Under the pieces are notes generated by a model. That model worked only from the letters and a program-made list of their open reading frames with translations. It made no database searches and was not told the origin of the DNA. From positions 1-20,657 of the IMG/VR virus record IMGVR_UViG_3300031801_000036: a stretch of 20,657 bases of DNA; one strand, 5' to 3'. The position numbers and the translations under genes were made by a program. Of the stretch, positions 192 through 20,657 are shown one piece after another. How positions within the stretch are numbered: the first letter of the stretch is position 1; every line of letters starts with the position of its first letter. The stretch comes from a virus.

Positions 192-743
192 ATGGCTACC
201 GATATTTCTTTATGTTCAAACGCCTTGCTACTGATAGGGCATGGCACGATATCCAGCTTTACCGAGGGCGGTGCCGGGGCAACCGTAGCGGCGAATCTCT
301 ACACCAGCAGTTATGAATCCTGTTTAACGATGCACCGCTGGCGCTTTGCCAGTGCGAAGTCGCAATTAGCACGACTGACGGCAACGCCGTTAAATGAATG
401 GACGTATGCGTATTCACTGCCGTCCGGTTATCTCCTAGGCATTAAGGTATACCCCGATGTTGAGTATGAGATATACGAGGACAAGTTATATGCACACGCG
501 AATACCGTCGCACTTGATTACATCTTTAAGCCCGACGAATCCCGGCTGCCCGCGTACTTTGTCAAGATGATGGAGTACAACCTGGCGTCCCAGTTTTCTG
601 TACCAGTGACCAGCAACAAGTCAACCGGTGAACTTTATGCGGCAATGTACGAGGCGCAATTAAGACGGTCAAAATTTCTCGATTCACAATCGCGCCCAAC
701 GAGCAGTATTATTGATTCTCCATTTACCGAGGTTAGGCAGTAG
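192..743 (+). CDS. Tail tubular protein A (T7 gp11-like adaptor)
   Basis: This 183-aa protein has the N-terminal pattern of the podovirus tail tubular A family: a short helix (DISLCSNALLLIG), then a Thr/Ala-rich turn and the segment YTSSYESCLTMHRWRFA. The length is close to T7 gp11 (about 196 aa). In T7 this protein forms the ring that joins the portal to the nozzle protein gp12. The ATG at 192 follows an AGGTAGGA ribosome binding site at 183-190 and is the first start after the terminator. The stop TAG shares one base with the GTG start of the next gene (TAGTG at 741-745), so translation of the pair is probably coupled. The gene pair TtpA-TtpB strongly supports the identification. Confidence 0.88.
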   Translation: MATDISLCSNALLLIGHGTISSFTEGGAGATVAANLYTSSYESCLTMHRWRFASAKSQLARLTATPLNEWTYAYSLPSGYLLGIKVYPDVEYEIYEDKLYAHANTVALDYIFKPDESRLPAYFVKMMEYNLASQFSVPVTSNKSTGELYAAMYEAQLRRSKFLDSQSRPTSSIIDSPFTEVRQ

Positions 744-2422
744 TGCCTCGGGTTCTAAACTTTCAGACGAATTTTGTTTCGGGGGTGTTAGACCCAAGGC
801 TGGCTGCGCGTACTGATATCAAACAGTATTACCAGGGCTGTGCAGAAGGCACTAACGTCCTGTCATTGCCGCAAGGCGGATTAAAGCGTCGCCCAGGCAT
901 GGCGTATCAGGCAACCCTGCCAGGTAAGTCGCGCATCTGTATGTTTGCGTTTAACGTCGAGCAAACGTATTTGATTTCATTCTCGAACAACAACATCGCA
1001 ATCTATAAAGACGGCGTTAAACAAGCGGACGTTACCTCGACCTACACCGAAGCACAGATATTCGATATTAACTGGACGCAATCAGCCGATACGATGATTA
1101 TCGTGCATGAGGATCATGCGCCCGCTAAGTTGGTGCGTGGTGCTTCACACACCTCCTGGACGTTATCGGCCATCACGCTAACAAACATTCCGACGTTTGA
1201 TTACGGGTCGGGTGCCGAGGCTGTGTGGAGTGCAACGAAAGGTTATCCTAAAACTGCCACATTCTTTGAGCAGCGGTTATGGTTTGGTGGATCGAAGAAT
1301 CGACCCCAAACAATGTGGGCATCGGTGATTGGTGATTTCTTTAATTTCAATGTAGGCACAGGTGCCGACGATGATGCGATTGATATTACGCTCGACACTG
1401 ACCAGGTAAACGCAATCAAAGCGGTATACGCCGGTCGTCATCTAACGGTATTCACTTCTGGTGCAGAGTTTTATATATCTGATTCACCGATCACCCCTGC
1501 GAAATCCGCTGTTAAACGACAAACGCAATACGGGTCGGGCAGTGTGCGCCCTATGAATATCGACGGCGCGATTCTATTTATTGAGCGATCTGGTAAGGCA
1601 GCGCGTGAGTTTCTGTGGACATACGAAGAAGAAGCATACACGGCTAATTCGTCGTCATTGATGGCGTCACATTTAATCAGCAGCCCGGTCGATATGGACG
1701 CCAGACGGGGCACTTCAACGGATGATGCTAACTATGTTTACCTCGTCAATAGCGATGGCACGATGGCGGTTTTTAACACTCTACGACATCAGGAAGTGGG
1801 AGGATGGACAAAGTGGAGCACCACGGGAACCATCGAGTCGGTCGCGGTTATTGTCGACGATGTTTACTTTTCCGTCTTACGCACCATTAACTCGGTTGCT
1901 GTCCGCTTTCTCGAGAAGGCGAACGAAAGCACATATACCGACGCCAACAAACTGCAAACCCTTGGTTCGCCAGGCACAGCAGTCTCGGGGCTTGCCCATC
2001 TCAACGGGGAATCCTGTCGAGTAAGAGCGGATGACGCGCTCATGGATGACGCAACGCCATCAGGCGGAGCGATTACCCTGGCGCGTAATGGAACAACGGT
2101 AGAGGTGGGGCTCGATTACGACATCATAGTTAAGACGATGCCGCTTAATTCGGATTTTCAAAACGGGCCGATACTGACCAGATATAAGCGTTTGGTGCGC
2201 GTAGTGACTGATCTTTATCAATCGCTTGGTGTGTATGTGAATGACATATACCTGGCCGATAGGGGTTTTGGCGAGGATGTTCTTGATGACACACCGCCAG
2301 GCTTTACCGGGATAAAGGAAACACATCTGCTGGGTTGGGATCGCCTGGCGCAAATCACTATCACTCAACAAGACCCGCAGCCGTTTACCTTGTTAGCGAT
2401 AGCGATTGAGGTGGAGGCTTAA
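743..2422 (+). CDS. Tail tubular protein B (T7 gp12-like nozzle)
   Basis: This 559-aa protein begins with the characteristic opening of the family (PRVLNFQTNFVSGVLDPRL), followed by DIKQYYQGCAEGTNVLSLPQGG and RRPGM, a block found in T7-like and marine podovirus nozzle proteins. In T7, six copies form the tapered tail tube below the gp11 ring. T7 gp12 is about 794 aa, so this is a shorter version. The remainder is beta-rich with repeated YxVNSDGT-like strands, consistent with a propeller-type fold. The start is GTG at 743, overlapping the previous stop by one base, with a GAGG motif at 729-732. An in-frame ATG far downstream would remove the conserved opening, so GTG is preferred. Confidence 0.9.
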   Translation: MPRVLNFQTNFVSGVLDPRLAARTDIKQYYQGCAEGTNVLSLPQGGLKRRPGMAYQATLPGKSRICMFAFNVEQTYLISFSNNNIAIYKDGVKQADVTSTYTEAQIFDINWTQSADTMIIVHEDHAPAKLVRGASHTSWTLSAITLTNIPTFDYGSGAEAVWSATKGYPKTATFFEQRLWFGGSKNRPQTMWASVIGDFFNFNVGTGADDDAIDITLDTDQVNAIKAVYAGRHLTVFTSGAEFYISDSPITPAKSAVKRQTQYGSGSVRPMNIDGAILFIERSGKAAREFLWTYEEEAYTANSSSLMASHLISSPVDMDARRGTSTDDANYVYLVNSDGTMAVFNTLRHQEVGGWTKWSTTGTIESVAVIVDDVYFSVLRTINSVAVRFLEKANESTYTDANKLQTLGSPGTAVSGLAHLNGESCRVRADDALMDDATPSGGAITLARNGTTVEVGLDYDIIVKTMPLNSDFQNGPILTRYKRLVRVVTDLYQSLGVYVNDIYLADRGFGEDVLDDTPPGFTGIKETHLLGWDRLAQITITQQDPQPFTLLAIAIEVEA

Positions 2423-2424
2423 TT

Positions 2425-3201
2425 ATGGGTGCTGCTGCTGGCCCGATGATGCAGTTGGGAATGGGTGTGGTATCGGCTGGGGTGTCTGCATCCTCTGGCA
2501 GTAAGGCCAAGGCCGGACTGTATGAACACGCGAGCCTGATCGAAGAATTCGGCGAAGTAGATGCAACGAATGTCGAAGAGTTTGGTGCGTTACAGGTTGC
2601 CTATCAGAAGTCCCAGGCGGGTTATAAACACGACTTCGCGATAAAGAGCTCCAGGCTCGAAGATAAAAAGGTCGATCTATTCGAGCAGGGTGTTAAAAAA
2701 GATATTCGCGATGAGAAACGCGCAGCGCGTGATCGAATGATGATGCGAACTAAAAGCATTCTCGACACACTCAGCACGCAAACGGCAGCTCGAAGTGCCC
2801 AGGGTATTGTGGCATTCGAAGGTAGCGCCTTACACATGCAGCGCGTTGATTTTCTCGAGTACGAGGCGGATAAAGCGATTGATCGAGGGGATACTGCCGA
2901 ACGTATCGTCGATCTCAAATTCTTTGGCGGTGAACGCGCGAAGCTGATGCGTGAACGTAATTCGCTATTGCGTGATATTGCTGGGGTTGAACTCGGCAGC
3001 GCGATGGCGTCGGCTGGCCTCACTGAAGATGCGTACGAAATGCAAGCCGGGAGTATGCGTCGATCTTATGCGCTCGAGGCGGGCTCTTACCGTATACAAG
3101 GACAATCCGCGCAGCGTCAGGGCTACATGAGCGGAATGAATTCATTGTTTAGTGGCATCAATCGTTATCAATCACTAGGCGGGACATTTGGGAATGGCTA
3201 A
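2425..3201 (+). CDS. Internal virion protein, gp14-like by position
   Basis: This 258-aa protein has a small-residue, Gly/Ala/Met-rich N-terminus (about residues 1-30), then a long charged, mostly helical region (about 40-185) and a Gly/Ser-rich C-terminus ending in GTFGNG. T7 gp14 (196 aa) is a similarly helical internal protein that is ejected first and forms a pore in the outer membrane. The position directly after tail tubular B and before very large core proteins matches gp14. No sequence motif proves the family, so the call rests on position, size and composition. The ATG begins two bases after the previous stop. Its TAA overlaps the next ATG (TAATG at 3199-3203). Confidence 0.6.
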   Translation: MGAAAGPMMQLGMGVVSAGVSASSGSKAKAGLYEHASLIEEFGEVDATNVEEFGALQVAYQKSQAGYKHDFAIKSSRLEDKKVDLFEQGVKKDIRDEKRAARDRMMMRTKSILDTLSTQTAARSAQGIVAFEGSALHMQRVDFLEYEADKAIDRGDTAERIVDLKFFGGERAKLMRERNSLLRDIAGVELGSAMASAGLTEDAYEMQAGSMRRSYALEAGSYRIQGQSAQRQGYMSGMNSLFSGINRYQSLGGTFGNG

Positions 3202-6200
3202 TGGTTGAACGTTACAAAAGCGACGCGCAATATAAGCCGGGGATGAATCCGTACCGTTACGCGGAAGGGATCACTACGCCCGCTGCACCCCAGTTAACGC
3301 CGCCACCGCCAGCACCTAATCTGCGACGACCGCGCACAACGCCAGGGCTTGCCAAGGCACAGGCAGCAAAGCAGGAAGGCTCGCAATTAACGCAGATGCT
3401 CGGTCAATGGTCGGATACGTTGTACGAGCAAGCGGCAGAAAAAATTGCAATCGAGGCCGAGGCTGAAGGGATCGAGGCGGGCAACCATACCGACGCAGAT
3501 GGGAACCTGATACCGCCAGAGCTTGATACGAACAATATCAACGTTCGCTCTAAAGCCTATTACAACGGGCAAGTGCTGGCCTATAGGAGCGCAACACAAA
3601 CCGACGTTATCACAACGATGGCGCGCCTGGAGCTCGAATCTCCAGAGGACGAGGATACTTATAGCCGTAACGTTGAGGCATATCGTTCGGGCATGACCGA
3701 CGGATTAACCGGCAAGCTCAAGCTGTGGGCTAATAACGAAATCAATACGCGGGCCGCACACGGATTGGTAAAGATTCGAGAGCGGGCGTTACAGAGTTCA
3801 CGCGAACAACAAAAGTCAGCGATTGTTGAAAATGCGAGAGTGTTAACCGAGGAGATAAACATAGACTCGTTTAATGGGGAAATGGAAGAGCAGTTTATCA
3901 AGCTCTCGCAACTCGAGAATATGTTGGATGAGGCGGTGTACAACCGATTACTAGATCAAGATGATGTTGATAAGGTGCTGTCCGAGTTAGAGGACGACAT
4001 GCTGGTTAATACATTAAAAGGCACGGTCGTTAGAACAATCACGAATGAGGGGCTACCGGCAGCAGAGGCGGCATTGCGGCGGTTTGAGGAAATGCCACCG
4101 GATCAGATTGGTATAGGCGTCCCTGTTGATAGAGATGGCAATTTCGACCCCGATGGAGAAGAAACCGGCGTTATGCACTTAACGCCCGCATTGCGTGAGC
4201 GATTGATTCGAGAAGCAAAAACCGAACTTAGCTCGGCACGCACACGGTTTAGTAAGGAGAAAGCACTCGCCAATGCAGAGCGGTCAGCGGTTAATGCACT
4301 GATTGCTAAAGAGTTAAGCAATATAGAAAACACAATTAAAAACGGAGAAGAACCGGTCAAGGCGAATATGGCCGCACTCGATAAAGCGACTCAAGAGAAC
4401 CCCAAACACCGCTCCCGTTTTACGAAGTGGAAAGAGATTCTCCAGAGGGTGCAGTATTGGAAGTCGCAGCCACTATTGAAGGTCGAGCAAAAGATTGCGT
4501 TGGCTAGAGCGCAAGATGAAGTAAGTGATATCTCAATGCGAACGCTCTTGATAATCGAGAAGATGTACAAGTCGCGCCAGGCGGAGACAACGGGAGATAA
4601 TCGCGCCGCCGTTGAACGTGTGGTTAACGAGATGAAGACGGCGGTGGCGTTGACGAGCCCCGGCAATACAGAGTTGAGGGTAGACCTCGAAAAACTTGAC
4701 GAGTTAGTTGGGGCAGTAAAAGGCACCTCGTTATATGAAAAGTTAGAAGACGAAAAGTATTATTACAAAACACTGAGCAAGATACTCGGCCTTTCAAAAG
4801 AGCAACGAGTAGCCATGATGGATCAGTGGGAAAAATCGAAAAAGTCAGACCCATACCGTGCAGAACTTTTCGCTCGCCTGGAGCCGCTACACAATGCACT
4901 GATAGCGGATAAGGAAACAGAGATAGCAGAGCAAGTTGGTCACATGAGAACTGCCCTGCTGTCGGATAAGAAAATCGACAAGAATGAATTACAGGCGCTT
5001 AAAGACGCTGCAAGACACACCAAATACGAAAAACCTCTCGCATTAGCACTTCAAAAATACGATGCACTCAACAGTTTTCAAATGATGCCAGTTGTCACCG
5101 ATGATGGCAGTCCGAATCAAAATGATTGGTTACTTGAACAAAGGGGTAAAACGTTTGGTGCGAGAGAGGCTGAAGTAATCGACCATCTTGCCGCCTTTCA
5201 CGATAAAGCACTAACCCGCATCAAAGCGGGCAAGGGTTTGGACGTTGCGATAGATATGGGCATATTAGATGAGCGTGATTTGCCCGCGCTGAACAGTGCG
5301 ATTGTAGGGAGCCGAGAGAACTTTAGCGCATTCCTCTCGCTGCGCGCGGATGCGGCGGCGAAAGCACAGGCGGGATTTGGGCCGCAAACAGTGGTAGGGC
5401 TAGAGGCGGATTTCGATCCAGAAGCAGAAACACGCATACCAGGGCGTAGGGGTGTTGGTTTTAATGTGCCCGCGTTAAGGCCCGCCGAGGTGGATTTATT
5501 AGTGGAGCAGATGACGGCCGCGAGCCCGGATGCCCAGGTGCAGATACTTGAGACACTGGTTGAGAATCTCGATACACAGGGAGCGATGCTGATTTTTGGG
5601 CAGTTCGATAAGAAGGGCGCGACCGTGTTGGCGATGGCGGGTTCGTTAATGACCGATGATGCTCCAGGTGTTGCGCGCGAAGTCGTGATAGGACGCACCA
5701 TGGTGAATGCACCATTCATGCCGGAAAACAAAAAACTGCGCTTGGAGATCATGCAAAAGTTAATGGGCGCAATGCCGGTCAGTACTAACTTAGAGTACGC
5801 ACAGTTAGATGCACTGACGGATACTATTGTCGCGAACATAGCATATAAGGCTGCTGTAAACATGAGCTCTACCGATTCATCGTATGATCCCACATCATTC
5901 AAGGACAATTATGAAACGACTTTAGATGCTGCGGTAGACGATGTCACGGGCGGAATCATTACGGTTCTTTGGGATGAATCGAGCGGGTGGGGTGATGCAG
6001 AATACAGGTTATTCGCGCCTCGACGCGGGTGGGATAGCGATGATTTTGTTCAAGCACGGCGAGCGATCACACCAGAGCATATTGTGGCGATGGGCGACCT
6101 CCACCCACATCACGACAAGGCGGCAGTATTAGCAGGGATTAGAGGCAGCATTGGGCTTGCAACTAACCAGGGTTCGGTTTATAAATTTGAGCCCGTCGGT

Positions 6201-6683
6201 GGATTGGGTGAACGCGGTAAGGGTTATTACTTAAAGCAGTCCGGTGCTGATGAGAAATATGTCGCTGGGAAAGACGGGAAGGCATTCGTGTTTCGATTCC
6301 CAGAGGGCAAGTATTGGCCGGATCGAACGCCGTCTGTTAAGAGCTTTTTCGGATTCAAAGATACTAAACCGTCTGCTACTGACCCCGGTGCTGGCATGGA
6401 GGAAGCGCTACCCGATGCGAAGCGTGATGAGTTAGCTCACGCGGCTGTCACTTCAATAATTGATGGCAAGGCTACGCTAGACATTATAGATGGGTTGCCT
6501 CAAAAAACTGCTGACGAGGTTGTTCGTCTTTTGGAGGAAAATTTAGAAGTAGCGGGAGAACACTTCAAACCATCAGGGGACGACGATAAAGGATCGACCC
6601 CATACCTTGACGAACTTGAAGATCGTTTGCGCGGAAAGAAGCTCGCCGAAGGCAAACCAATACTTGTGAAGAAGAAAAGGTAA
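3201..6683 (+). CDS. Large internal virion (core/ejection) protein, gp15-like by position
   Basis: This 1160-aa protein is predominantly charged and helical. It has a Pro-rich N-terminal arm (about residues 27-50, with a PPPPAP stretch), a long helical body rich in Glu, Lys and Ala, and a C-terminal part (about 890-1040) in which Gly- and aromatic-rich strands appear (GSVYKFEPVGG, then GKAFVFRFPEGKYW). T7 gp15 (747 aa) has a comparable layout, with helices and then a short strand segment near its end; it forms part of the periplasmic ejection channel. No lytic transglycosylase or other peptidase motif was found. The start ATG shares a base with the upstream stop and the stop shares a base with the next ATG (TAATG at 6681-6685), so it is coupled on both sides. 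Confidence 0.6.
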   Translation: MVERYKSDAQYKPGMNPYRYAEGITTPAAPQLTPPPPAPNLRRPRTTPGLAKAQAAKQEGSQLTQMLGQWSDTLYEQAAEKIAIEAEAEGIEAGNHTDADGNLIPPELDTNNINVRSKAYYNGQVLAYRSATQTDVITTMARLELESPEDEDTYSRNVEAYRSGMTDGLTGKLKLWANNEINTRAAHGLVKIRERALQSSREQQKSAIVENARVLTEEINIDSFNGEMEEQFIKLSQLENMLDEAVYNRLLDQDDVDKVLSELEDDMLVNTLKGTVVRTITNEGLPAAEAALRRFEEMPPDQIGIGVPVDRDGNFDPDGEETGVMHLTPALRERLIREAKTELSSARTRFSKEKALANAERSAVNALIAKELSNIENTIKNGEEPVKANMAALDKATQENPKHRSRFTKWKEILQRVQYWKSQPLLKVEQKIALARAQDEVSDISMRTLLIIEKMYKSRQAETTGDNRAAVERVVNEMKTAVALTSPGNTELRVDLEKLDELVGAVKGTSLYEKLEDEKYYYKTLSKILGLSKEQRVAMMDQWEKSKKSDPYRAELFARLEPLHNALIADKETEIAEQVGHMRTALLSDKKIDKNELQALKDAARHTKYEKPLALALQKYDALNSFQMMPVVTDDGSPNQNDWLLEQRGKTFGAREAEVIDHLAAFHDKALTRIKAGKGLDVAIDMGILDERDLPALNSAIVGSRENFSAFLSLRADAAAKAQAGFGPQTVVGLEADFDPEAETRIPGRRGVGFNVPALRPAEVDLLVEQMTAASPDAQVQILETLVENLDTQGAMLIFGQFDKKGATVLAMAGSLMTDDAPGVAREVVIGRTMVNAPFMPENKKLRLEIMQKLMGAMPVSTNLEYAQLDALTDTIVANIAYKAAVNMSSTDSSYDPTSFKDNYETTLDAAVDDVTGGIITVLWDESSGWGDAEYRLFAPRRGWDSDDFVQARRAITPEHIVAMGDLHPHHDKAAVLAGIRGSIGLATNQGSVYKFEPVGGLGERGKGYYLKQSGADEKYVAGKDGKAFVFRFPEGKYWPDRTPSVKSFFGFKDTKPSATDPGAGMEEALPDAKRDELAHAAVTSIIDGKATLDIIDGLPQKTADEVVRLLEENLEVAGEHFKPSGDDDKGSTPYLDELEDRLRGKKLAEGKPILVKKKR

Positions 6684-9600
6684 TGGTCGGTTTTTATGAG
6701 GAAGTGACAGACTATCGCCGACGGTTGGTGAATCGTAACGTTGTCAGCAGTCCAGAAGAAGCACAAGAAAGAGTCACGGGCGGTGATGTGTTCTCGGCGG
6801 TGCGTAAATCGTTCGCTACGGAAGACACGACAGGGGGTGTGCATCGGTTTACAGAGAAAGCAATTTACGACCAGATGGAGGCGATTGGAGAGGTCGATCC
6901 AGAGTTTAAGTATTACAACATCCCGTCATCTGGATCGATTCGGTCGAGTCAACTCGCCCATGCAACTGCTGGCATCCAAAACATAAATAAAGATAGTCCA
7001 AACGCGACTTGGTACAAATCTCAAAGCGAACGCATTAAGCAGCTAAACAAAGAACACGGCACGAACTTTCTAACCTGGGAAGAGCTCGAGCCAAAAACCA
7101 TTGCGGATATCAATTCGATGTTCAAGCGTGCCGAGCACGCAAAAGCCACAGCGTCGCCGCATGATGCGTTTTGGGGTGGGCTGGGTGGTGTGGCGGTGGG
7201 CGCACTGCAAGACCCCATAATAGCCGGTTCGATGTTTCTTTCCTGGCCGTTAACCGCAGCAAAGGCCGCGCATTTAGGTACTGCGGGCAAAATCTTTCAC
7301 GGAATGAAAACCGATGCAGCTATTTTCGGTGGCATCGAGGCTGCGATTATTCAACCTCATGTGTACTTTCAAAAGGATGCACTAGGCAGGGATTACACAA
7401 TAGGGCACGCTGCGATGGTCACGTTAATGGTGAGTGGCGGTGCGGCTGGGTTTCGCGGCATTCTCGAGGGTGCTGGCATGAGTGCCAAGGCGTTATATCG
7501 AACGTTACGCGACACACACACTAAAGAAGAAGCGGCGGCGGTGATTCGTGATACCGGTAATCAATTAAATGCCGCTGGAGAAACTAAAACCGCAGAGGTA
7601 ATGTGGCAATGGGCGGATGCGGTAGGGGAAACCCCGCGCGGTTGGGAAATAGGCCCAGACGGAACGATAACGATAACTGTGCGTCCTAGCGATGAGCTGC
7701 TACACGTTAGGAATCTCGATATTGCCTGGGATAATCTCGAGAGGGGTTTCGTTGAGCCATTCGAGGCGCCGACGGTTGCAATGCCGGTCAAGCCAGAGCA
7801 TCAACCGATACACCTGGGGGATGCCCCCGAGCCGGTGCGGGTCGATCCGAGAGAGATAAAGGTAGATGCGAAAACATTTCAATTCAAGGAAGGCGGCGAT
7901 GCGGCGGGAGTTACTGCCAGGCTAAAGGGCGTTAGTGAATGGGATGAAGTGTCTGCTGGAGTGATTATTGTTTTCGAGAATAAGGCGGGTGAGCGGTTTG
8001 TGGTTGATGGACACCAGCGCGTCGGCCTGGCTAATCGATTGATTGAAGAAGGTGCAGACCCGGACACCATTAGAATCGGCGCGCGAATCTATCGAGAGGT
8101 TGATGGGTACACCCAGCGCGAGGTGCGAATCCGCGCAGCCATTACGAACATTCAGCAGGACACCGGCAGCATTCTCGACGTTGCCAAGGTGATGCGTGAA
8201 ATGGGCGACCGGTACAACTCTGTGTTGCCACCCAACTCAGCCCTGGTGCGCGACGGTCGCAACATGGCGCGCCTTGACGATGATGCGTTTCAGTATGCAG
8301 CCAACGCACTCAAGCCAAAAGAGCATCGCCTGGCGGCAGTCGTCGGCGAGTTAATCCCGCAAGGGCCGGGACAGATAGCAGCCCTGCAAGCATTGGTAAG
8401 AAGTAAGCCCGCTAATCGCCTCCAGGCGCGAATGATTACAGAACAGATAAAGGTAGCGGGGTTTCAGCGCGTCGAAACACAAGACCTATTCGGCGGCATG
8501 ACGTTATCAGAAACATTGTTTAAGGAGCGCGCCCAGGTGCTCGAGAACTCGTTGCGTCTGCTTAAACAGAATCGATCATTACTTAGAACGGTACTCGACC
8601 GTGATGCGGAGTTAACCGGCCTCGGTAATCGAATGAACCGTGAAGCCAACCTAGAGAGGTTCGGAGAAGATGACACAGCAATCGAAGCCCTATCCAGACT
8701 CGCCAACACGAAAGGCCCAATCTCGGAAGCGCTCAACAAAGCGGCCCAAAGGATCAAAAACGGCGAAAACGTCGGACTTGTCACTCGGGCTTTTCTCGAG
8801 GGAAACGAATTTCGACTCGCTAGACGGGGAGGAGTTGTTAGCGATAGCGGAGGGGCTGCGGTTAGCCCTGGCGGACGCCCGCTCGAAACAACCCCAACCG
8901 CCGGTGATCGACCACCACTAAAGGATCAAGCGTTATACGACGACATCCGCGCGAAACTCGTGGAGGAGCGTCGGCAGCCAACTGATGCGGACTTGCCGCC
9001 AGAATTAGTTCCTGAAGTGGGGCGCCCGATTGCCTTGCAAACATTGCCCATTGCGGAGCAGAAATTAGTAGAAGCGGCGTTTAGGTCGTCACAGTACAAG
9101 GTTAAGACCATTCGCGGGTTGGTCGGTACTGACGACAAGATAGCAATAGCAAATCAGAACACGCTCGAGGGCGTCGCTGACGATATTGCTGCCGAGTTGG
9201 GTGTTGAGCACGTTCCACCACCGGCGCAAGAGGGAACAGGGTGGCGCCATAAAGAGCGCGACAGCATTGAGCGTAAGGTTAAGGATAAATTCGACGGTGA
9301 CTATTGGCAGGTAACCGACACGACGCGAACGTCGTTTGTGGTCGACACACCAGAACAAGCGGTGGCCATTATTGACGCATTAGGTAAGCGCCTGGCGCTA
9401 ATCGACGAAGGGTGGAATGTGCAGCCAGCACAAGGCTATTTAGACAACAAAATTCTAATTCGTCATTCAGACGGGCGAATCGCAGAGGTGCAAATTATTG
9501 GTCGTGAATTCTGGACGGCCAAATTCAAAGAAGGCGGCCACGATCTCTATTATCTGTGGAGAGAAACCTACGAGGTTGGCCCTGACGGTATAACAATAAT

Positions 9601-10246
9601 CAAGAATAAGGCCGAGTACGACCGATTACAGAATGAAATGGCGGCGCTTTATGCCGCTGCAAACCAGCGATCAAATGCAGCGTTCCAATCACTCTCGGAA
9701 AGGCTGCGTCCTTCGTCGAGTACGACGGGCCAGGGAACCGCTCGCCAACGCTTACCTGGTGATGAGCTAGACCAGGCAGACATTGCATTATCGCCTGGCT
9801 CGCGAGTTACTACGACGGGCATACCGTCCCAATCGAAAAGACCGACGATGTTATCCGAAGGTGGTGAATCTGGTGGCCCTGTCATGGGGGACATTATACC
9901 CCAAAGACAGGCCGAGGGGTGGGGGATTGGGGGTTGGGATGATCTCACAGTATCCCAACAATCTGATGAGATGTACCGCATGGAGTGGACTAAATTCGAG
10001 CGGGAATATAATGATAACGTTAAACAGTTATTAGAGGACGACCCCGAATTCACAGCATATACAGAATCGGAAGCGCTAGAGCTGCGTGAAACACTTAGAG
10101 AAAACCCCGACCTGGAAATACCCGCATCACGCGTTGATGAAAACGGCGAAATCATTACCGAAATCAGAACAGCACGCGAAGTTTTTGAGGAGCTGGCAGA
10201 AGAAGATGCACACACACTCGATCTATTTACTTGTATTAGAAGATGA
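6683..10246 (+). CDS. Giant internal virion/polyvalent protein with ParB-like and RelA/SpoT-like domains
   Basis: This is a 1187-aa protein. Residues about 155-270 are Gly/Ala-rich and hydrophobic, as in membrane-interacting parts of gp16-like ejection proteins. Residues about 388-500 are ParB-like, with VVDGHQR at 440-446. Residues about 800-960 match the RelA/SpoT synthetase fold: R855-x-K857-x3-S861-I-x2-K865, D879-x2-R882, GY at 918-919, E935-V-Q937-I and H953 in an H-x-L-Y-Y segment. Low-complexity Ser/Thr/Gly linkers lie at about 705-750 and 1010-1080, followed by an acidic helical C-terminus. Rel-family enzymes move pyrophosphate from ATP to GTP, GDP or RNA; the substrate here is unknown. 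Position among core genes suggests it is packaged and ejected. It starts in a TAATG overlap and ends in an ATGA overlap. An open +1 frame at 8787-8921 looks protein-like. Confidence 0.75.
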   Translation: MVGFYEEVTDYRRRLVNRNVVSSPEEAQERVTGGDVFSAVRKSFATEDTTGGVHRFTEKAIYDQMEAIGEVDPEFKYYNIPSSGSIRSSQLAHATAGIQNINKDSPNATWYKSQSERIKQLNKEHGTNFLTWEELEPKTIADINSMFKRAEHAKATASPHDAFWGGLGGVAVGALQDPIIAGSMFLSWPLTAAKAAHLGTAGKIFHGMKTDAAIFGGIEAAIIQPHVYFQKDALGRDYTIGHAAMVTLMVSGGAAGFRGILEGAGMSAKALYRTLRDTHTKEEAAAVIRDTGNQLNAAGETKTAEVMWQWADAVGETPRGWEIGPDGTITITVRPSDELLHVRNLDIAWDNLERGFVEPFEAPTVAMPVKPEHQPIHLGDAPEPVRVDPREIKVDAKTFQFKEGGDAAGVTARLKGVSEWDEVSAGVIIVFENKAGERFVVDGHQRVGLANRLIEEGADPDTIRIGARIYREVDGYTQREVRIRAAITNIQQDTGSILDVAKVMREMGDRYNSVLPPNSALVRDGRNMARLDDDAFQYAANALKPKEHRLAAVVGELIPQGPGQIAALQALVRSKPANRLQARMITEQIKVAGFQRVETQDLFGGMTLSETLFKERAQVLENSLRLLKQNRSLLRTVLDRDAELTGLGNRMNREANLERFGEDDTAIEALSRLANTKGPISEALNKAAQRIKNGENVGLVTRAFLEGNEFRLARRGGVVSDSGGAAVSPGGRPLETTPTAGDRPPLKDQALYDDIRAKLVEERRQPTDADLPPELVPEVGRPIALQTLPIAEQKLVEAAFRSSQYKVKTIRGLVGTDDKIAIANQNTLEGVADDIAAELGVEHVPPPAQEGTGWRHKERDSIERKVKDKFDGDYWQVTDTTRTSFVVDTPEQAVAIIDALGKRLALIDEGWNVQPAQGYLDNKILIRHSDGRIAEVQIIGREFWTAKFKEGGHDLYYLWRETYEVGPDGITIIKNKAEYDRLQNEMAALYAAANQRSNAAFQSLSERLRPSSSTTGQGTARQRLPGDELDQADIALSPGSRVTTTGIPSQSKRPTMLSEGGESGGPVMGDIIPQRQAEGWGIGGWDDLTVSQQSDEMYRMEWTKFEREYNDNVKQLLEDDPEFTAYTESEALELRETLRENPDLEIPASRVDENGEIITEIRTAREVFEELAEEDAHTLDLFTCIRR

Positions 10247-12681
10247 AATTTAACGATTGCCTAGAGGAATCTGTAGCCGCTGGTCGAATCACCAGGGCAG
10301 AGGCGCAGCATGTCGCTGGTCAAATTGACGCGCTACAAAACTCGCTAACACTCCGGGGTGAAGTATCACCAGAAGTAGCAAGAACACAGGCAGAGCAAGC
10401 GGTATTGCTTGCCAGGCAGAAACACACCGCGCTTAAACGTCGGCAAGCGGGACTGCAAGCCATTAGAACGCACCAGGCAACACAGGCTGCGCTCGCGCAT
10501 CCGAGGGGATTTGTCGAGGGGATTTGGGGATTATTAGCAAAAGACCCAGGGCGCGAGGCGCGAGTATCAAATATCGATCAACGCGCAACCGCTGTTAAGG
10601 GCTGGCTCCACTCGTTATTTGCTGATTCGATGGATAAGATGCGAACAAAAAACCTCGGTCTTTCTCAGGATATAGAGTTGCCTAGATTGATGCTGCGCGA
10701 GTTGATGGGCGAAAAAACAGGAAACGCGTCAGCTAAAGAAGCGGCGACGCTGTGGTCTGGAGTCGCCGAGGCTGCCCGTCTTCGATTCAATCGCGCCGGT
10801 GGTTCGATTCCCAAGCTAATCGATTGGGGTATGCCGCAATATCACGATCCGGCGTTAGTGGGGCGCATGGGTGCTGACGCATGGATTGACAAGATTACAC
10901 CGCTACTTGATCGCAGCAGGATGATAAACGAGGTCGGTATCCCGCTAAACGATGCAGAGTTTCGCATTATGCTCGAGAAAGCGCACAACACAATACGAAC
11001 GAATGGATTGTCAGACCTTACGCCTGGGCAAGTGGGGGGCAGCAAGTTAGCTAACCGTCGCCAGGATCATCGCGTACTACATTTTAAGAACGCTGATTCC
11101 TGGTTGAAGTATCACGATGAATTCGGGCACGCCGATCTCTATACGACGCTAACCGATCACCTCAACGGAATGGCGCACGATATAGCCAAGCTCGAAGTAT
11201 TAGGCCCGAATCCAGACGCGACGTTTCGTTACTTGCGCGATATGGCAATCAAGAGGGGCGAGCTCGATGGCGCGGGATTTTCGTGGAACAACAAAGAAAT
11301 GCTCGAGAGTCATTGGAATGTTGTGAGCGGTAAAGCCGACGCGGTTGAGCATGTGATGCTGGCAAACTTCGCCGGAGCGGTTCGCAATTATTTAACCGCC
11401 GCCCATTTAGGTGGTGCGATGCTGAGTGCAATATCCGATATCGCGTTTGTGCGCCAAACTGCCAGGTTCAACGGGATGAAAGCGACCAAGGTGTTAAAGC
11501 GCGGCCTGGAAATTATGTCGAGTGCTGACGATAGAATGTTTGCGGTGCGGGCTGGGCTAACTGCCGATGCGTGGATCGTGCGGGCATTGGGTGGTAATCG
11601 TCATGTCGAGGTAACGGGTGCGGGGTTCTCGTCAAAGGTATCCGATTTCACGATGCGTGCCTCTCTGCTATCCACCTGGACGGATTCGATGCGGAAAGCA
11701 TTCGGTATGGAGTTTATGGGGTACATTGCCGACAACGTACGCAGACAATTCAAAGATTTACCGAAACCGTTACGCGATACGTTCGAGGGTTATGGGATTA
11801 AGGCGAGCGATTGGGATGTGATGCGTGGCACAGATTTAATCAGTTATAAAGAGGTCGGGTTTTTTAGTGTCGAGAACCTAATGAAACGCGTCGACCTGGA
11901 CGAAGGCGCCAGAATGGATTTAATGACCCGTATACAGGAGATGATTTTTAGCGAAACAGATTTCGCCGTTCCTGTGCCGGATTCCAGAGCGCGGACATTT
12001 ACTACCTGGGGAAAAAAACGCGGCACGTTGGTCGGTGAACTTGCTCGAAGCGTCGGACAATTTAAGTCGTTTCCGATAACGATTATCACTTCTCATTTGA
12101 TGAGGGCAGCTCGCCAAAGTGGATGGCAAAACAAGGCGGCGTACCTCGGCAGCCTAGCGGTATCGACCACAGTGATGGGTGCTGTTGCGATGACCATGAA
12201 AGACCTGGCGAGAGGTCGCGATCCTCGAGATATGACCAGCGCGAAATTCTGGTCGGCTGCATTTATACAGGGCGGTGGTGCGGGAATATTTGGTGACTTT
12301 TTGTATTCTGCCGAAAGTAGATTTGGTAAAGGATTTGTCTCGACAGTGGCAGGGCCAGGGGTGGGTTTAGTTGACGACATGAAGGATATGGTCGTTGGAA
12401 ACCTGTATTCGTTGACACATGGCGACGATACCAACATCGGGCGAGAGGTGGTAAAATTCGCAGAGCGGTATTCCCCAGGTGGTTCACTATGGTACGCACG
12501 CCTCGCGCTCGAGCGGGCGATGTGGGATCAACTCCAGAACGCGGTTGACTCTAAAGCTGGTCGAGGGTTTCGACGCGAAAAACGCAACCGTCGAAAAGAT
12601 TATGGTCAGGAACATTGGTGGCAACCAGGACAAGCAGCACCGTCCAGGGGGCCAAACATAGAGGCACTGTTTGGGGGCTAA
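10243..12681 (+). CDS. Internal virion protein, similar to C-terminal part of gp16-like ejection proteins
   Basis: This 812-aa protein starts inside the stop of the previous gene (ATGA at 10243-10246). The N-terminal 100 residues are helical and charged. The middle contains WGMPQYHDPALVG (about 202-214). The C-terminal third has the pattern common to large podovirus ejection proteins: a basic helix with FKSFPITIITSHLMR, a hydrophobic stretch at about 631-655 (AAYLGSLAVSTTVMGAVAMT), GRDPRDM, then GGGAGIFGDFLY and the GP..GLVDDM segment. The protein ends in Arg/Lys and Trp-rich sequence. In T7 a single gp16 (1318 aa) spans the periplasm and inner membrane; here the equivalent appears divided between this gene and the preceding one. 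Family membership is a pattern judgement. Confidence 0.7.
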   Translation: MKFNDCLEESVAAGRITRAEAQHVAGQIDALQNSLTLRGEVSPEVARTQAEQAVLLARQKHTALKRRQAGLQAIRTHQATQAALAHPRGFVEGIWGLLAKDPGREARVSNIDQRATAVKGWLHSLFADSMDKMRTKNLGLSQDIELPRLMLRELMGEKTGNASAKEAATLWSGVAEAARLRFNRAGGSIPKLIDWGMPQYHDPALVGRMGADAWIDKITPLLDRSRMINEVGIPLNDAEFRIMLEKAHNTIRTNGLSDLTPGQVGGSKLANRRQDHRVLHFKNADSWLKYHDEFGHADLYTTLTDHLNGMAHDIAKLEVLGPNPDATFRYLRDMAIKRGELDGAGFSWNNKEMLESHWNVVSGKADAVEHVMLANFAGAVRNYLTAAHLGGAMLSAISDIAFVRQTARFNGMKATKVLKRGLEIMSSADDRMFAVRAGLTADAWIVRALGGNRHVEVTGAGFSSKVSDFTMRASLLSTWTDSMRKAFGMEFMGYIADNVRRQFKDLPKPLRDTFEGYGIKASDWDVMRGTDLISYKEVGFFSVENLMKRVDLDEGARMDLMTRIQEMIFSETDFAVPVPDSRARTFTTWGKKRGTLVGELARSVGQFKSFPITIITSHLMRAARQSGWQNKAAYLGSLAVSTTVMGAVAMTMKDLARGRDPRDMTSAKFWSAAFIQGGGAGIFGDFLYSAESRFGKGFVSTVAGPGVGLVDDMKDMVVGNLYSLTHGDDTNIGREVVKFAERYSPGGSLWYARLALERAMWDQLQNAVDSKAGRGFRREKRNRRKDYGQEHWWQPGQAAPSRGPNIEALFGG

Positions 12682-14343
12682 ATGGCGACGCTACTCGTTA
12701 ATGATGTAACGCCACGGGTGCAGTACACTGCAACCGGCGCGCAAACTGTATTCGCTTACGGTTTTTCGATCTTTGTTGATGCCGATCTAAAGGTATACAA
12801 GGGCTCAACCTTAATGACGTTGAGTGCGGCGTCAAATAATACGAGCTATCAAGTTTCTGGAGCAGCCACGACCGCTGGCGGTAACGTCACATTCGGGGCG
12901 GGTCTAACTGGTGGCGACATTGTTACCATCTACCGTGATTTGCCGGTATCAAGAACCTCTGATTATCAGACCGGTGGTGACTTGCTCGCCGAAACGCTGA
13001 ACGACGACCTCGATAAGATCGTGCAAATGGTTCAGCAAGGCGAGCGCGATATTAACCAGCGCACGCTACGCTTTGGGCAGTTCACGACGGGCATACCCCT
13101 GGCAGAGTTCACAGAATCCGCAACGGATCGAGCCAACAAAGTGCTGGGATTTGACTCCTCGGGCGATCCTAATATCACCCAGGAGCTGGGTACATTCCAG
13201 GGGAATTGGGCAGCGAGTACGGCGTACGTCATTCGCGACCTAGTTAAAGACACAAGCAATAATAATATTTACATCTGCACAGTCGCGCATACCAGTTCGG
13301 GATCACAACCACTGTCGAGTAATACCGACGTGGCTAAATGGTCGTTGATTGTTGATTCTGCGAGTGCGACGACTTCGGCCACAGCAGCGGCCACCAGTGC
13401 GACTGCATCGGCAACGTCGGCCACTGCATCAGCCACTAGTGCAACCGCAGCAGCCACTAGTGCGACAGCGGGAGCGACAAGCGCAACTGCATCAGCAACA
13501 AGCGCGACAGCGGGAGCGACAAGCGCGTCGGCAGCAGCGACATCTGCAACAGCGGCTGCTGCGTCTTACGATTCATTCGATGATCGCTACCTGGGGACTA
13601 AGTCCAGCGATCCAACAGTAGATAATGATGGTGCCACTTTGCTTGATGGTGCGCTGTACTTCAACACCACAAACAACGTGATGATGGTGTACGACCTGGG
13701 CGGTACAACCTGGAACAGAACGACACCAACCACATCAGACCAGACCAAGATCAACACGGTCAGCGGTATCGCGGCGAATGTAACGACTGTCGCTGGGATT
13801 TCCAGTGATGTGACGGCAACCGCCGGCAAGGCCACAGAGATTGGATTGCTGGGTGTTGCCGCAGTAATTACAGATATGGGAATACTCGGCACAGCCGATG
13901 TAGTCGCCGATATGAATACGCTAGGCACTGCTGACGTTGTTACAGATATGAACACGCTAGGCACTGCCGATGTTGTTGTCGACATGAACACCTTGGGTAC
14001 GGCAGATGTAGTCGCTGATATGAATACCTTGGGTACGGCAGACGTGGTTGTTGACATGAACACGCTTGGCACTGCGGCTAACGTCACTGCGATGGATAAC
14101 TGTTCAGGATCGATCACCAACATAAACACTTGCGCGACGAACCTGACCAACATCAACTCGTTTGCAAACACATACACAATCGCGGGTAGTGCTCCTGGTT
14201 CACCTGGGGCTGGCGACCTCTGGTACGACACATCTCTGAACAAACTTAACTTTTACACCGGATCAGCGTGGACAGAGATCGCGCCTGGAATCACAACTGA
14301 GGTCGACCCAAGCGCGGCGGCACTCGCACTGGCACTGGGGTAA
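12682..14343 (+). CDS. Tail fibre protein with T7 gp17-type N-terminal domain
   Basis: This is a 553-aa fibre. Residues 1 to about 145 form the T7-type tail-attachment domain (VQYTATGAQTVFAYGFSIF, then the YRDLPVSRTSDYQ and ETLNDDLDK blocks). Residues about 172-225 resemble a small carbohydrate-binding-like module (NWAASTAYVIRDLV, IYICTVAHTSSG). Nine SAT-type heptads follow at about 232-294, then DRYLGTKSSDP, seven 12-residue GTADVV repeats (about 391-474), an N/T-rich stretch, and a C-terminal strand block GDLWYDTSLNKLNFYTGSAW that is common at the ends of marine phage fibres. The attachment domain links the fibre to the tail nozzle. The short C-terminus with no obvious receptor-binding head suggests that later proteins in the cluster attach to it. 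ATG directly follows the previous TAA. Confidence 0.9.
   Translation: MATLLVNDVTPRVQYTATGAQTVFAYGFSIFVDADLKVYKGSTLMTLSAASNNTSYQVSGAATTAGGNVTFGAGLTGGDIVTIYRDLPVSRTSDYQTGGDLLAETLNDDLDKIVQMVQQGERDINQRTLRFGQFTTGIPLAEFTESATDRANKVLGFDSSGDPNITQELGTFQGNWAASTAYVIRDLVKDTSNNNIYICTVAHTSSGSQPLSSNTDVAKWSLIVDSASATTSATAAATSATASATSATASATSATAAATSATAGATSATASATSATAGATSASAAATSATAAAASYDSFDDRYLGTKSSDPTVDNDGATLLDGALYFNTTNNVMMVYDLGGTTWNRTTPTTSDQTKINTVSGIAANVTTVAGISSDVTATAGKATEIGLLGVAAVITDMGILGTADVVADMNTLGTADVVTDMNTLGTADVVVDMNTLGTADVVADMNTLGTADVVVDMNTLGTAANVTAMDNCSGSITNINTCATNLTNINSFANTYTIAGSAPGSPGAGDLWYDTSLNKLNFYTGSAWTEIAPGITTEVDPSAAALALALG
13375..13563 (+). repeat. Nine 21-bp units encoding SATAxAT heptads
   Basis: Nine in-frame 21-base units encode Ser-Ala-Thr-Ala-x-Ala-Thr heptads, with x being Ala, Ser or Gly. 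A 23-base stretch is duplicated at about 13462-13484 and 13503-13525, showing recent unit duplication. Such Ala/Ser/Thr heptads form an extended trimeric shaft or linker in phage and pyocin fibres. The repeat number is likely to vary between relatives. Confidence 0.9.
13852..14103 (+). repeat. Seven 36-bp units encoding GTADVVxDMNTL
   Basis: Seven consecutive 36-base units encode 12-residue repeats. The central five (13888-14067) are GTADVVxDMNTL with x alternating Ala, Thr and Val; the first (GVAAVITDMGIL) and last (GTAANVTAMDNC) are degenerate. Synonymous third-base differences between units show that they are not all very recent copies. They are continuous coding sequence in the fibre shaft without spacers. 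Confidence 0.92.
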
Positions 14344-19332: not shown

Positions 19333-19446
19333 ATGAAACAACTAAAAGTGTGGTGGAACAATCAATCGACGAGCTTTAAGTTAGTCGCTGGTGTTGCAGC
19401 GTTCGCCGTTGCCATCGCGATTTTCCAAGGGATAACTGGCGCGTGA
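19333..19446 (+). CDS. 37-aa small membrane protein
   Basis: The ATG at 19333 has a good AGAGG binding site at 19322-19326, six bases upstream. The product has a short basic, Trp-containing head (KQLKVWWNN) and one hydrophobic span at about residues 17-31 (LVAGVAAFAVAIAIF). Its TGA overlaps the GTG start of the holin gene (GTGA at 19443-19446). The tight junctions on both sides support it as a real gene. Coupling to the holin suggests an antiholin or holin partner; that role is not proved. Confidence 0.6.
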   Translation: MKQLKVWWNNQSTSFKLVAGVAAFAVAIAIFQGITGA

Positions 19447-19847
19447 AACTCGACCTCTTCGGTGTTGGCAAGGTTGCCGACTCCGTGATGGGTGGACTCG
19501 ATGAGCTCTTTACCTCTGATGAGGAGCGAGCCCTAGCGCGAATACGCGTACTCGAGATTCTTGCAAAAGCAGATAACGCGCAGACCTACATCAACGCAAT
19601 CGACGCGCAGTCAAATCATTTTTGGCAGTACGGGTGGCGCCCGTCAATCGCCTGGGCGGGTACTGCTGCCCTGGTGTATTCGTGGATTGGCAAACCGCTC
19701 TTGTTAACCATCTACGCGGCGACCGGATGGGCACCGTTAATTCTTTCTTTGCCTGATGTCCCAATGGACGCGATCACACCCATCATCATCGGTATGCTGG
19801 GTCTTGGCGCGATGCGTTCTTTTGACAAAAATAAAGCGCGCCAGTAA
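19443..19847 (+). CDS. Three-transmembrane phage holin
   Basis: This 134-aa protein has the GTA/phage 3TM holin pattern: an N-terminal amphipathic and acidic region (residues 1-55), then FWQYGWRPSIAW (W65-R66-P67), hydrophobic helices at about 68-83, 84-100 and 109-126, and the closing LGLGAMRSFDK. The WRP and G.RS signatures are diagnostic for the family. Holins permeabilise the inner membrane to time lysis. No endolysin gene lies in the window. The GTG start at 19443 overlaps the preceding stop by four bases and keeps the conserved N-terminal length. Confidence 0.85.
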   Translation: MKLDLFGVGKVADSVMGGLDELFTSDEERALARIRVLEILAKADNAQTYINAIDAQSNHFWQYGWRPSIAWAGTAALVYSWIGKPLLLTIYAATGWAPLILSLPDVPMDAITPIIIGMLGLGAMRSFDKNKARQ

Positions 19848-20103
19848 ATGCTCCCACACTCTCATCCGAGTTGTGTGGGTCGATTCAGACCAGACAGCGG
19901 GTTGGTCTGAGCATAAGCGCGACCAGGCGCAACACAACCTTCTCTATTCCTACGGGCTACTCGTCGATAAAGACGAGGACTACCTCTATATCGCAGACAC
20001 GCACATGGGCGGCGACACCTGGGGTGGCTTATCCAGGTTCCCCCTGGGGTGCGTGCATAAGGTTGAAACAATGATAAAGGGAGTTCCGTGCAAGCCATGT
20101 TAG
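19822..20103 (+). CDS. Small conserved phage protein with V-W-V-D-S ... G-W motif; start uncertain
   Basis: The open frame ending at TAG 20101-20103 carries a compact beta-rich sequence: RVVWVDSDQTAGW at about 19867-19905, then a helix, SYGLLVDKDEDYLYIADTH and WGGLSRFPLG. Small phage proteins with V.W.DS...GW followed by an aqueous strand set are common beside lysis or replication genes; the function is unknown. The start is unclear. The only ATG in frame is 19756, which would overlap the holin by 92 bases. TTG 19822 and GTG 19873 are alternatives, and none has a good ribosome binding site. The C-terminal part is the well-supported portion. Confidence 0.6.
   Translation: MTKIKRASKCSHTLIRVVWVDSDQTAGWSEHKRDQAQHNLLYSYGLLVDKDEDYLYIADTHMGGDTWGGLSRFPLGCVHKVETMIKGVPCKPC
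19853..19879 (+). promoter_or_regulatory. Hairpin at the holin stop / downstream gene start
   Basis: CCCACAC (19853-19859) pairs perfectly with GTGTGGG (19873-19879), and CTC (19861-19863) with GAG (19868-19870) around an ATCC loop. No T-tract follows, so it is not a typical terminator. It covers the GTG at 19873, a possible start of the next gene, and could control its translation or stabilise RNA after the holin stop. Confidence 0.45.
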
Positions 20104-20657
20104 AAGCTAAAGTCGTCCTTAATGCACTCGAAGAAACAGATGGCAACCAAAGCGCTGCCGCAAGATTGTTGCAAGTGCCGCGTACCACATTCCGCAAAGC
20201 GATTAAACGGATTCGTACGGCAGGAACAATAGAAAAGAACGGTATCGATTTTCCAGAGATACCCGAGGACGATATACCCGTCGATCAAATCATCGATCAG
20301 ATGTCGCGACGATTCACACGGCGACAACAAGCCTACCGCGCCAGGCAGTGGATGCGTTACAAGGTGAAAGAAAAGAAACCTATCGGCATTGCGTGGGTCG
20401 GTGATCCTCACGTTGACTCGAACGGTTGCAATTGGCCGCTGCTGCGCGAGCACTGTCGGATCATGGCAGATACCCCTGGACTGTACGGCGCGTCGATTGG
20501 CGACCATAGCGACAACTGGGTGGGGCGTCTTACCCGCCTGTACGCAGAATCAGAACAGTCTCGGAGCACGGCAATTAAGCTGGTCGATTGGCTGCTGCGT
20601 GATAGCGGTGTCAACTGGATGCTATTGTTACGCGGCAACCATGACATGTGGACAAAC
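20088..20657 (+). CDS. HTH plus calcineurin-like metallophosphoesterase, partial at window end
   Basis: The frame runs open to the window edge (190 residues seen). Residues about 12-40 form a Fis-type helix-turn-helix (NQSAAARLLQVPRTTFRKAI). A basic linker follows at about 70-95. The catalytic domain shows three metal-binding motifs of calcineurin-like phosphoesterases: G105-D-P-H108-x-D110, G138-D-H-S-D142-N143 and G183-N-H-D186. Such enzymes cleave phosphodiesters or nucleotides. The DNA-binding head suggests DNA or nucleic-acid substrates, an inference. GGGAG at 20079-20083 fits GTG 20088; ATG 20097 is the alternative start and would shorten the overlap with the upstream gene from 16 to 7 bases. 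Confidence 0.85.
   Translation, partial: MQAMLEAKVVLNALEETDGNQSAAARLLQVPRTTFRKAIKRIRTAGTIEKNGIDFPEIPEDDIPVDQIIDQMSRRFTRRQQAYRARQWMRYKVKEKKPIGIAWVGDPHVDSNGCNWPLLREHCRIMADTPGLYGASIGDHSDNWVGRLTRLYAESEQSRSTAIKLVDWLLRDSGVNWMLLLRGNHDMWTN

What the first reader, a model, noticed from the sequence alone, without database searches (positions are those of the whole stretch)
9080..9570. RelA/SpoT-type nucleotidyltransferase domain inside a probable ejected virion protein
The protein at 6683-10246 sits among the T7-like internal core genes, which are normally packaged and injected, yet residues about 800-960 show the Rel synthetase signatures in order: R-x-K-x3-S-I-x2-K (855-865), D-x2-R (879-882), GY (918-919) and E-V-Q-I (935-938). 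A phage that injects a (p)ppGpp, ppApp or RNA pyrophosphokinase with its genome could reset host metabolism or block translation before any phage gene is expressed. It could equally be a degenerate domain that only binds nucleotides.
Basis: partly seen in the sequence, partly recalled or inferred. Interest (0 to 1): 0.85.

Follow-up and report, generated by a model that had tools for sequence, protein, structure and literature searches.

The report
Phage ejection protein carrying alarmone-synthetase cassette
A bacterial virus protein that is probably shot into the host cell together with the viral DNA carries an exchangeable enzyme domain of the same fold as bacterial toxins that turn ATP into the alarm nucleotide (p)ppApp; related marine phages carry a different toxin, or nothing, at the same spot.

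Summary
The motifs are at the stated coordinates. AlphaFold2 folds residues 780-1000 with confidence (pLDDT 91.6). All 46 solved structures matching at E<=1e-3 are alarmone-synthetase-type enzymes, Tas1 first. A family profile matches Tas1, a (p)ppApp-making antibacterial effector, at E=3e-21, and RelA only weakly. Across about 68 related phage proteins the catalytic Asp (D879) and Glu (E935), the lysine K857 and R882 are essentially invariant, so a degenerate domain is unlikely. The acceptor-site motif is GYFDRK-like, neither the RelA type (GYxSxH) nor the Apk2 type (GYxGxN), so the product is open. The protein sits at the epsilon15 gp16 position. Its N-terminus matches phiVC8 gp18, its middle is ParB/Noc-like, and the enzyme is an exchangeable ~300-residue cassette. 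Of 66 homologues fetched by the ParB region, 31 carry a zeta toxin there, 15 this domain, 6 a divergent Rel-like domain and 10 nothing. RelA/SpoT domains in phage 'polyvalent' proteins were predicted in 2017, and MuF-linked (p)ppApp toxins are known. This is a new variant of a known kind. Ejection and enzyme activity remain untested.

The parts
6683..10246 (+). P0001, 1187-aa multidomain protein: N-terminal ejection-protein part, ParB/Noc-like domain, Tas1-like synthetase cassette, conserved C-tail
6683..7834 (+). aa 1-384, ejection-protein part; aa ~27-361 homologous to Vibrio phage ZCVPP1 XRM24277 (E 2.8e-48) and phiVC8 gp18 (E 1.5e-27)
   Evidence: iterated HMM search
7835..8800 (+). aa 385-706, ParB/Noc-like (probably DdrB-like) domain with VDGHQR motif at aa 441
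   Evidence: PHROG 10691 E 1.2e-50 and ParB PHROG 1033 E 0.0024; AF2 model pLDDT 82.8, only PDB match E<=1e-3 is ParB-family Noc 7nfu
9020..9682 (+). aa 780-1000, Tas1-like pyrophosphokinase (SYNTH) domain
   Evidence: purifying selection dN/dS 0.22, core 0.18
9251..9277 (+). syn1 / ATP-donor motif K857...K865 (invariant lysines of the family)
   Evidence: K857 67/67, K865 65/67 of aligned relatives
9317..9328 (+). syn2: catalytic Asp D879 and R882 (D-x2-R, as in Tas1 DLAR)
   Evidence: 67/67 each; Tas1 alignment
9434..9451 (+). syn3 (acceptor site): G918-Y-L-D921-N-K923; family consensus GYFDRK
   Evidence: Y 66/68, D 67/68, K 66/68
9485..9496 (+). syn4: catalytic Glu E935 in E-V-Q-I
   Evidence: E 68/68, Q 67/68
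9953..10246 (+). conserved C-terminal tail (aa 1091-1187, ends ...FTCIRR), also kept by homologues without a cassette
   Evidence: alignment A5; dN/dS 0.05
10243..12681 (+). downstream ejection/virion protein, homologue of epsilon15 gp17, phiV10p20 and phiVC8 gp19
   Evidence: phrog_684 E 6.9e-193; epsilon15 gp17 E 2.7e-66
3201..6683 (+). large protein (1160 aa) upstream, probable tunnel/ejection protein by position
   Evidence: position and synteny; no informative Pfam hit
2425..3201 (+). 258-aa protein, probable gp14-like internal virion protein by position
   Evidence: position; only a weak PHROG 418 'internal virion protein' hit E 0.89
743..2422 (+). tail nozzle protein (T7 gp12 / epsilon15 gp12 type)
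   Evidence: Pfam Phage_nozzle 1.6e-13, PHROG 376 6.7e-149

Best explanation
The stretch encodes a Tas1-type nucleotide 3'-pyrophosphokinase domain. It is a ~300-residue effector cassette in a podoviral ejection protein (epsilon15 gp16 position) that also has a ParB/Noc-like domain. The protein is packaged and ejected with the DNA. In the cytoplasm the domain binds ATP and moves its beta,gamma-pyrophosphate to the 3'-OH of an acceptor, most likely ADP/ATP, making (p)ppApp and draining ATP, and so throttles host metabolism and defence while the genome enters. Shown here: the fold, closest relative, conserved catalytic set, purifying selection, operon position and slot exchange with zeta toxin. 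Inferred: packaging, ejection, activity, acceptor and benefit to the phage.
For: Profile hit to Tas1 E 2.9e-21, SaEAS 1.3e-7. AF2 pLDDT 91.6 and Foldseek top hit Tas1, all E<=1e-3 hits being synthetases of this fold. D879, R882, E935 and K857 invariant in ~68 relatives. dN/dS 0.18-0.22. The same slot holds zeta toxin (PF06414, best E 1.8e-38), a divergent Rel-like domain, or nothing. N-terminus homologous to phiVC8 gp18 and downstream gene to epsilon15 gp17. Prior literature: RelA/SpoT in phage polyvalent proteins (PMC5512222) and (p)ppApp-making MuF phage toxins (PMC12226406).
Against: The acceptor motif GYFDRK matches neither the (p)ppApp enzymes (GYxGxN) nor the RSH (GYxSxH), so the product is not predictable from sequence. 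No virion proteomics. No immunity gene was seen next to the gene, unlike Apk1/Apk2 (only 20.6 kb of genome available). A toxin that drains ATP might also harm phage replication unless copy number is low or its action brief.
Confidence: 0.55

Rival explanations
1. Same fold and delivery, but the acceptor is not ATP/ADP: it pyrophosphorylates the tRNA CCA end or another molecule and blocks translation.
For: The acceptor motif GYFDRK is unlike both nucleotide-specific types (signatures in PMC12226406). tRNA-modifying toxSAS share the fold (PMC11782079). A Rel-like domain with GYRATH occupies the slot in L083.
Against: By sequence the closest solved enzyme is the nucleotide-specific Tas1. CapRel ranks far lower by fold (E 1.5e-3).
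Confidence: 0.15
2. It makes (p)ppGpp and mimics the stringent response.
For: Same SYNTH fold; the Tas1-related SaEAS prefers guanylate acceptors and VpEAS makes only (p)ppGpp (PMC12691689).
Against: Lacks the RSH syn3 SxH and syn4 QIR signatures; RelA proper is only a weak profile hit.
Confidence: 0.1
3. An active synthetase that is not injected but acts late in the producing cell, or acts on competitors or superinfecting phage.
For: No virion evidence here; MuF toxins are discussed as polymorphic toxins in competition (PMC12226406).
Against: The domain is covalently part of a protein whose N-terminus is homologous to an ejection-cluster protein and whose gene sits between ejection genes; a free late enzyme would not need that.
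Confidence: 0.13
4. A catalytically dead nucleotide- or DNA-binding domain used structurally in the ejectosome.
For: Part of the canonical syn1 (R, S) is not conserved in the family.
Against: The catalytic D and E and the ATP-site lysine are invariant across strongly diverged relatives; homologues exist without the cassette (short forms), so it is not structurally required.
Confidence: 0.06

Closest known systems
Tas1 / Apk1 (T6SS (p)ppApp synthetase effector, PDB 6ox6)
   Same: Fold, D-x2-R, E-[IV]-Q followed by SPEM-like and ...AK...GH..Y...R elements; best sequence and structure match
   Different: Carrier is a phage ejection protein, not a PAAR T6SS protein; syn3 GYFDRK instead of GYSGVN; no adjacent immunity gene seen
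Apk2 (MuF-linked (p)ppApp synthetases of temperate phages)
   Same: Alarmone-synthetase effector fused to a phage head-associated protein (PMC12226406)
   Different: No MuF domain; ejection protein with ParB/Noc-like domain; Apk2 syn2 RYT, syn3 GxN and syn4 YH not present; no adjacent iapK/aph1-like gene recognised
Phage 'polyvalent proteins' with RelA/SpoT and DdrB-like ParB (Iyer et al. 2017, PMC5512222)
   Same: Multidomain, phage late-gene context, ParB plus RelA/SpoT-type domain, predicted co-injection with DNA
   Different: There described for spirochaete and epsilonproteobacterial (pro)phages and MuF fusions; here mainly metagenomic podovirus-type contigs, a Tas1-like clade with its own acceptor motif, and slot exchange with zeta toxins (the paper's main text does not mention zeta toxin)
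epsilon15 gp16 / phiVC8 gp18 ejection-cluster proteins
   Same: Gene position before the gp17-type gene; N-terminal homology to phiVC8 gp18
   Different: phiVC8 gp18 is only 390 aa and has no room for the ParB and synthetase parts
BFVD A0A6J5KIV2, 'DdrB-like domain-containing protein' (uncultured phage)
   Same: Best viral fold match (E 1.6e-11), 1129 aa, DdrB-like
   Different: Its synthetase-like domain is not reflected in the description

Membership tests
Tas1/Apk toxic (p)ppApp synthetases | SYNTH pyrophosphokinase fold with Tas1 as nearest relative | tested here: met
Tas1/Apk toxic (p)ppApp synthetases | Catalytic Asp (syn2) and Glu (syn4), donor-site lysine | tested here: met
   D879, E935, K857 invariant
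Tas1/Apk toxic (p)ppApp synthetases | Acceptor motif GYxGxN (syn3) | tested here: not met
   GYLDNK here, GYFDRK in 53 of 68 relatives
Tas1/Apk toxic (p)ppApp synthetases | Makes (p)ppApp | not testable with these tools
   needs an assay
Tas1/Apk toxic (p)ppApp synthetases | Cognate immunity gene next to toxin gene | tested here: inconclusive
   the next ORF overlaps by 4 bases and is the gp17-type gene; genome incomplete
Pfam RelA_SpoT PF04607 | Match above the curated cut-off | tested here: not met
   no hit for the window protein; best of 17 relatives E 0.021
Phage polyvalent proteins | Two or more effector-type domains in one large phage late protein, incl. ParB-like | tested here: met
Phage polyvalent proteins | Packaged in the virion and injected | not testable with these tools
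   needs virion proteomics or a delivery assay
Podoviral ejection (internal virion) proteins | Homology and synteny with ejection-cluster genes | tested here: met
   N-terminus vs phiVC8 gp18 and ZCVPP1; neighbour = epsilon15 gp17
MuF polymorphic toxins (Apk2) | N-terminal MuF domain | tested here: not met
   no Pfam hit in the protein; N-terminus is ejection-type
ParB/Noc superfamily (DdrB-like) | ParB fold with GxxR-type motif | tested here: met
   DGHQR invariant; fold match to Noc E 4.8e-4; the DdrB subtype itself was not tested

The most novel reading that the evidence does not exclude
A separate clade of ejected pyrophosphokinases, marked by the GYFDRK acceptor site, uses an acceptor not known for any alarmone synthetase. 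It is swapped with zeta-toxin kinases in one slot of a podoviral ejection protein, so these phages run a polymorphic-effector system delivered at genome entry, before any phage gene is expressed.
Probability: 0.25. Interest if true: 0.85.

Novelty: new variant of a known kind. Interest (0 to 1): 0.62.

Why it matters
If the domain is active and ejected, a phage would attack host nucleotide pools at the moment of DNA entry, mirroring how bacteria use Tas1 on rivals and CapRel against phages. The slot exchange (synthetase, zeta toxin or empty, with the same flanks) turns a general idea, that phages inject polymorphic effectors, into a testable set of natural gene pairs. The altered acceptor motif offers a handle on how this fold chooses ATP, GTP or tRNA, which motif swaps in Apk2 did not solve (PMC12226406).

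Tried and rejected
Single-sequence searches of Pfam, PHROGs, PDB and phage records gave no hit for the domain; only a family profile did. A weak carbamoyl-phosphate synthetase match (E 0.005) was rejected: with the 35-sequence profile it fell to E 0.18 while Tas1 rose, and the fold disagrees. Chance motif: rejected (0/20,000 shuffles, plus structure). A degenerate-codon pattern of syn1 was too loose to be allowed. The Foldseek TM-scores against PDB are moderate (0.5-0.6 for the best), so the ranking and the unanimity of the matches, not the TM value, carry the argument. The ejection-protein table in PMC8954989 numbers epsilon15 genes differently from the AY150271 record, so I used the record.

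Full report
OBSERVATION. The relaxed ordered motif set was absent from 20,000 shuffles of the protein. Single-sequence searches found nothing for residues 780-1000, so the claim needed relatives.

RELATIVES. One close relative exists in IMG/VR (L001, 80% identical in the domain). Scanning with the ParB-like region gave 80 loci, and iterated HMM search of their ORFs found some 15 diverged copies of the domain. A profile scan found 67 loci, giving 68 non-redundant domains. In these, K857, D879, R882, E935, Q937 and Y919/D921/K923 are essentially invariant. R855 and S861-I862, which made the window look RelA-like, are not conserved. 57 of the 68 domains lie in ORFs with the ParB-like region. Selection between the window and L001 is purifying: dN/dS 0.22 for the domain, 0.18 for its core, 0.50 for the linker before it.

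IDENTITY. A 35-sequence profile matches Tas1 (PDB 6ox6) at E 2.9e-21 and SaEAS at 1.3e-7, with the Tas1 alignment running over nearly the whole domain (D-x2-R, GY, GE-[IV]-Q, the AK and GH..Y..R elements). The AF2 model has pLDDT 91.6 and pTM 0.86. Its 46 PDB matches at E<=1e-3 are all members of this synthetase fold, Tas1 first. Pfam RelA_SpoT is not reached. In the viral structure library the best match is an uncultured-phage 'DdrB-like domain-containing protein' of 1129 aa, followed by proteins called RelA/SpoT and Tas1 among others.

ACCEPTOR SITE. Published signatures are SxH (syn3) and IR (syn4) for (p)ppGpp enzymes and GxN and YH for Apk2 (PMC12226406). Here syn3 is GYLDNK, with GYFDRK in 53 of 68 relatives, and syn4 is EVQII or E[IV]QIW. 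The domain therefore resembles Tas1 in fold and catalytic residues but fails one Apk signature. I call it Tas1-like, not a member of Apk1 or Apk2, and leave the acceptor open.

CONTEXT. The neighbours are tail tube and nozzle, a small probable internal protein, a large upstream protein, and downstream the homologue of epsilon15 gp17, phiV10p20 and phiVC8 gp19. The N-terminus of P0001 is homologous to phiVC8 gp18 (E 1.5e-27) and a ZCVPP1 protein (2.8e-48), which lie in the corresponding gene clusters. Epsilon15 ejects its internal proteins (PMC8954989). The middle domain folds like ParB-family Noc.

THE SLOT. Homologues keep the N-terminus, the ParB-like domain and the C-tail, but the stretch between varies. 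L086, whose downstream protein is 62% identical to the window's, lacks residues ~734-1030 altogether; L009 has a zeta toxin there. Among 66 distinct homologues fetched by the ParB region alone: 31 zeta-type, 15 Tas1-like, 6 divergent Rel-like, 10 without cassette, 2 other, 2 cut by contig ends. Pfam Zeta_toxin reaches E 1.8e-38 and one cassette hits DUF3990. An exchangeable toxin slot is the strongest sequence argument that the domain is an effector and not part of the ejection machine.

PRIOR ART. Iyer et al. 2017 predicted RelA/SpoT domains in phage polyvalent proteins, including with DdrB-like ParB, and proposed alarmone action after injection. MuF-linked Apk2 toxins of temperate phages make (p)ppApp and kill E. 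coli when expressed. The 2025 survey of 1,369 Apk1 homologues lists Sec, LXG, XopAD, MuF, DUF4157 and Rhs/PAAR carriers, not this one. Hence 'new variant of a known kind'.

LIMITS. No enzyme assay, no virion proteomics, partial genome (20.6 kb), host unknown (a Rhodobacteraceae MAG contig carries a relative). Counts come from pattern-seeded scans capped at 80 loci, so proportions are indicative only.

Noticed in passing
L009, L006, L019, L031 and others (e.g. L009:6964-8415): Zeta toxin (PF06414) in the same slot of the ParB-type ejection protein; more common than the synthetase (31 vs 15 of 66).
   Followed up: partly
L083:4729-8121 (aa 869-1077): A divergent Rel-like domain with RelA-type GYRATH acceptor motif occupies the same slot; L049, L051, L060, L062, L081 have weaker Rel-like matches.
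   Followed up: partly
L154:4180-11628 and L097:3964-8424: Large proteins in which the synthetase domain appears to lie before the ParB-like region, so domain order is not fixed.
   Followed up: no
L130, L141, L155: Copies of the domain in viral contigs whose IMG ids look like isolate genomes (possible prophages); no ParB-like region detected in these ORFs.
   Followed up: no
window 20088-20657: ORF cut by the window end: Fis-type HTH (PF02954) followed by what reads by eye as a calcineurin-like phosphoesterase motif set (GDPHVD, GDHSDNW, RGNHD).
   Followed up: no
window 12682-14343: Tail-fibre-like protein with a repeated 'GTADVVxDMNTL' unit in its C-terminal half.
   Followed up: no
window 19443-19847: Gene-transfer-agent-type 3TM holin (PF11351, E 1.2e-10), perhaps a hint of an alphaproteobacterial host.
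   Followed up: no
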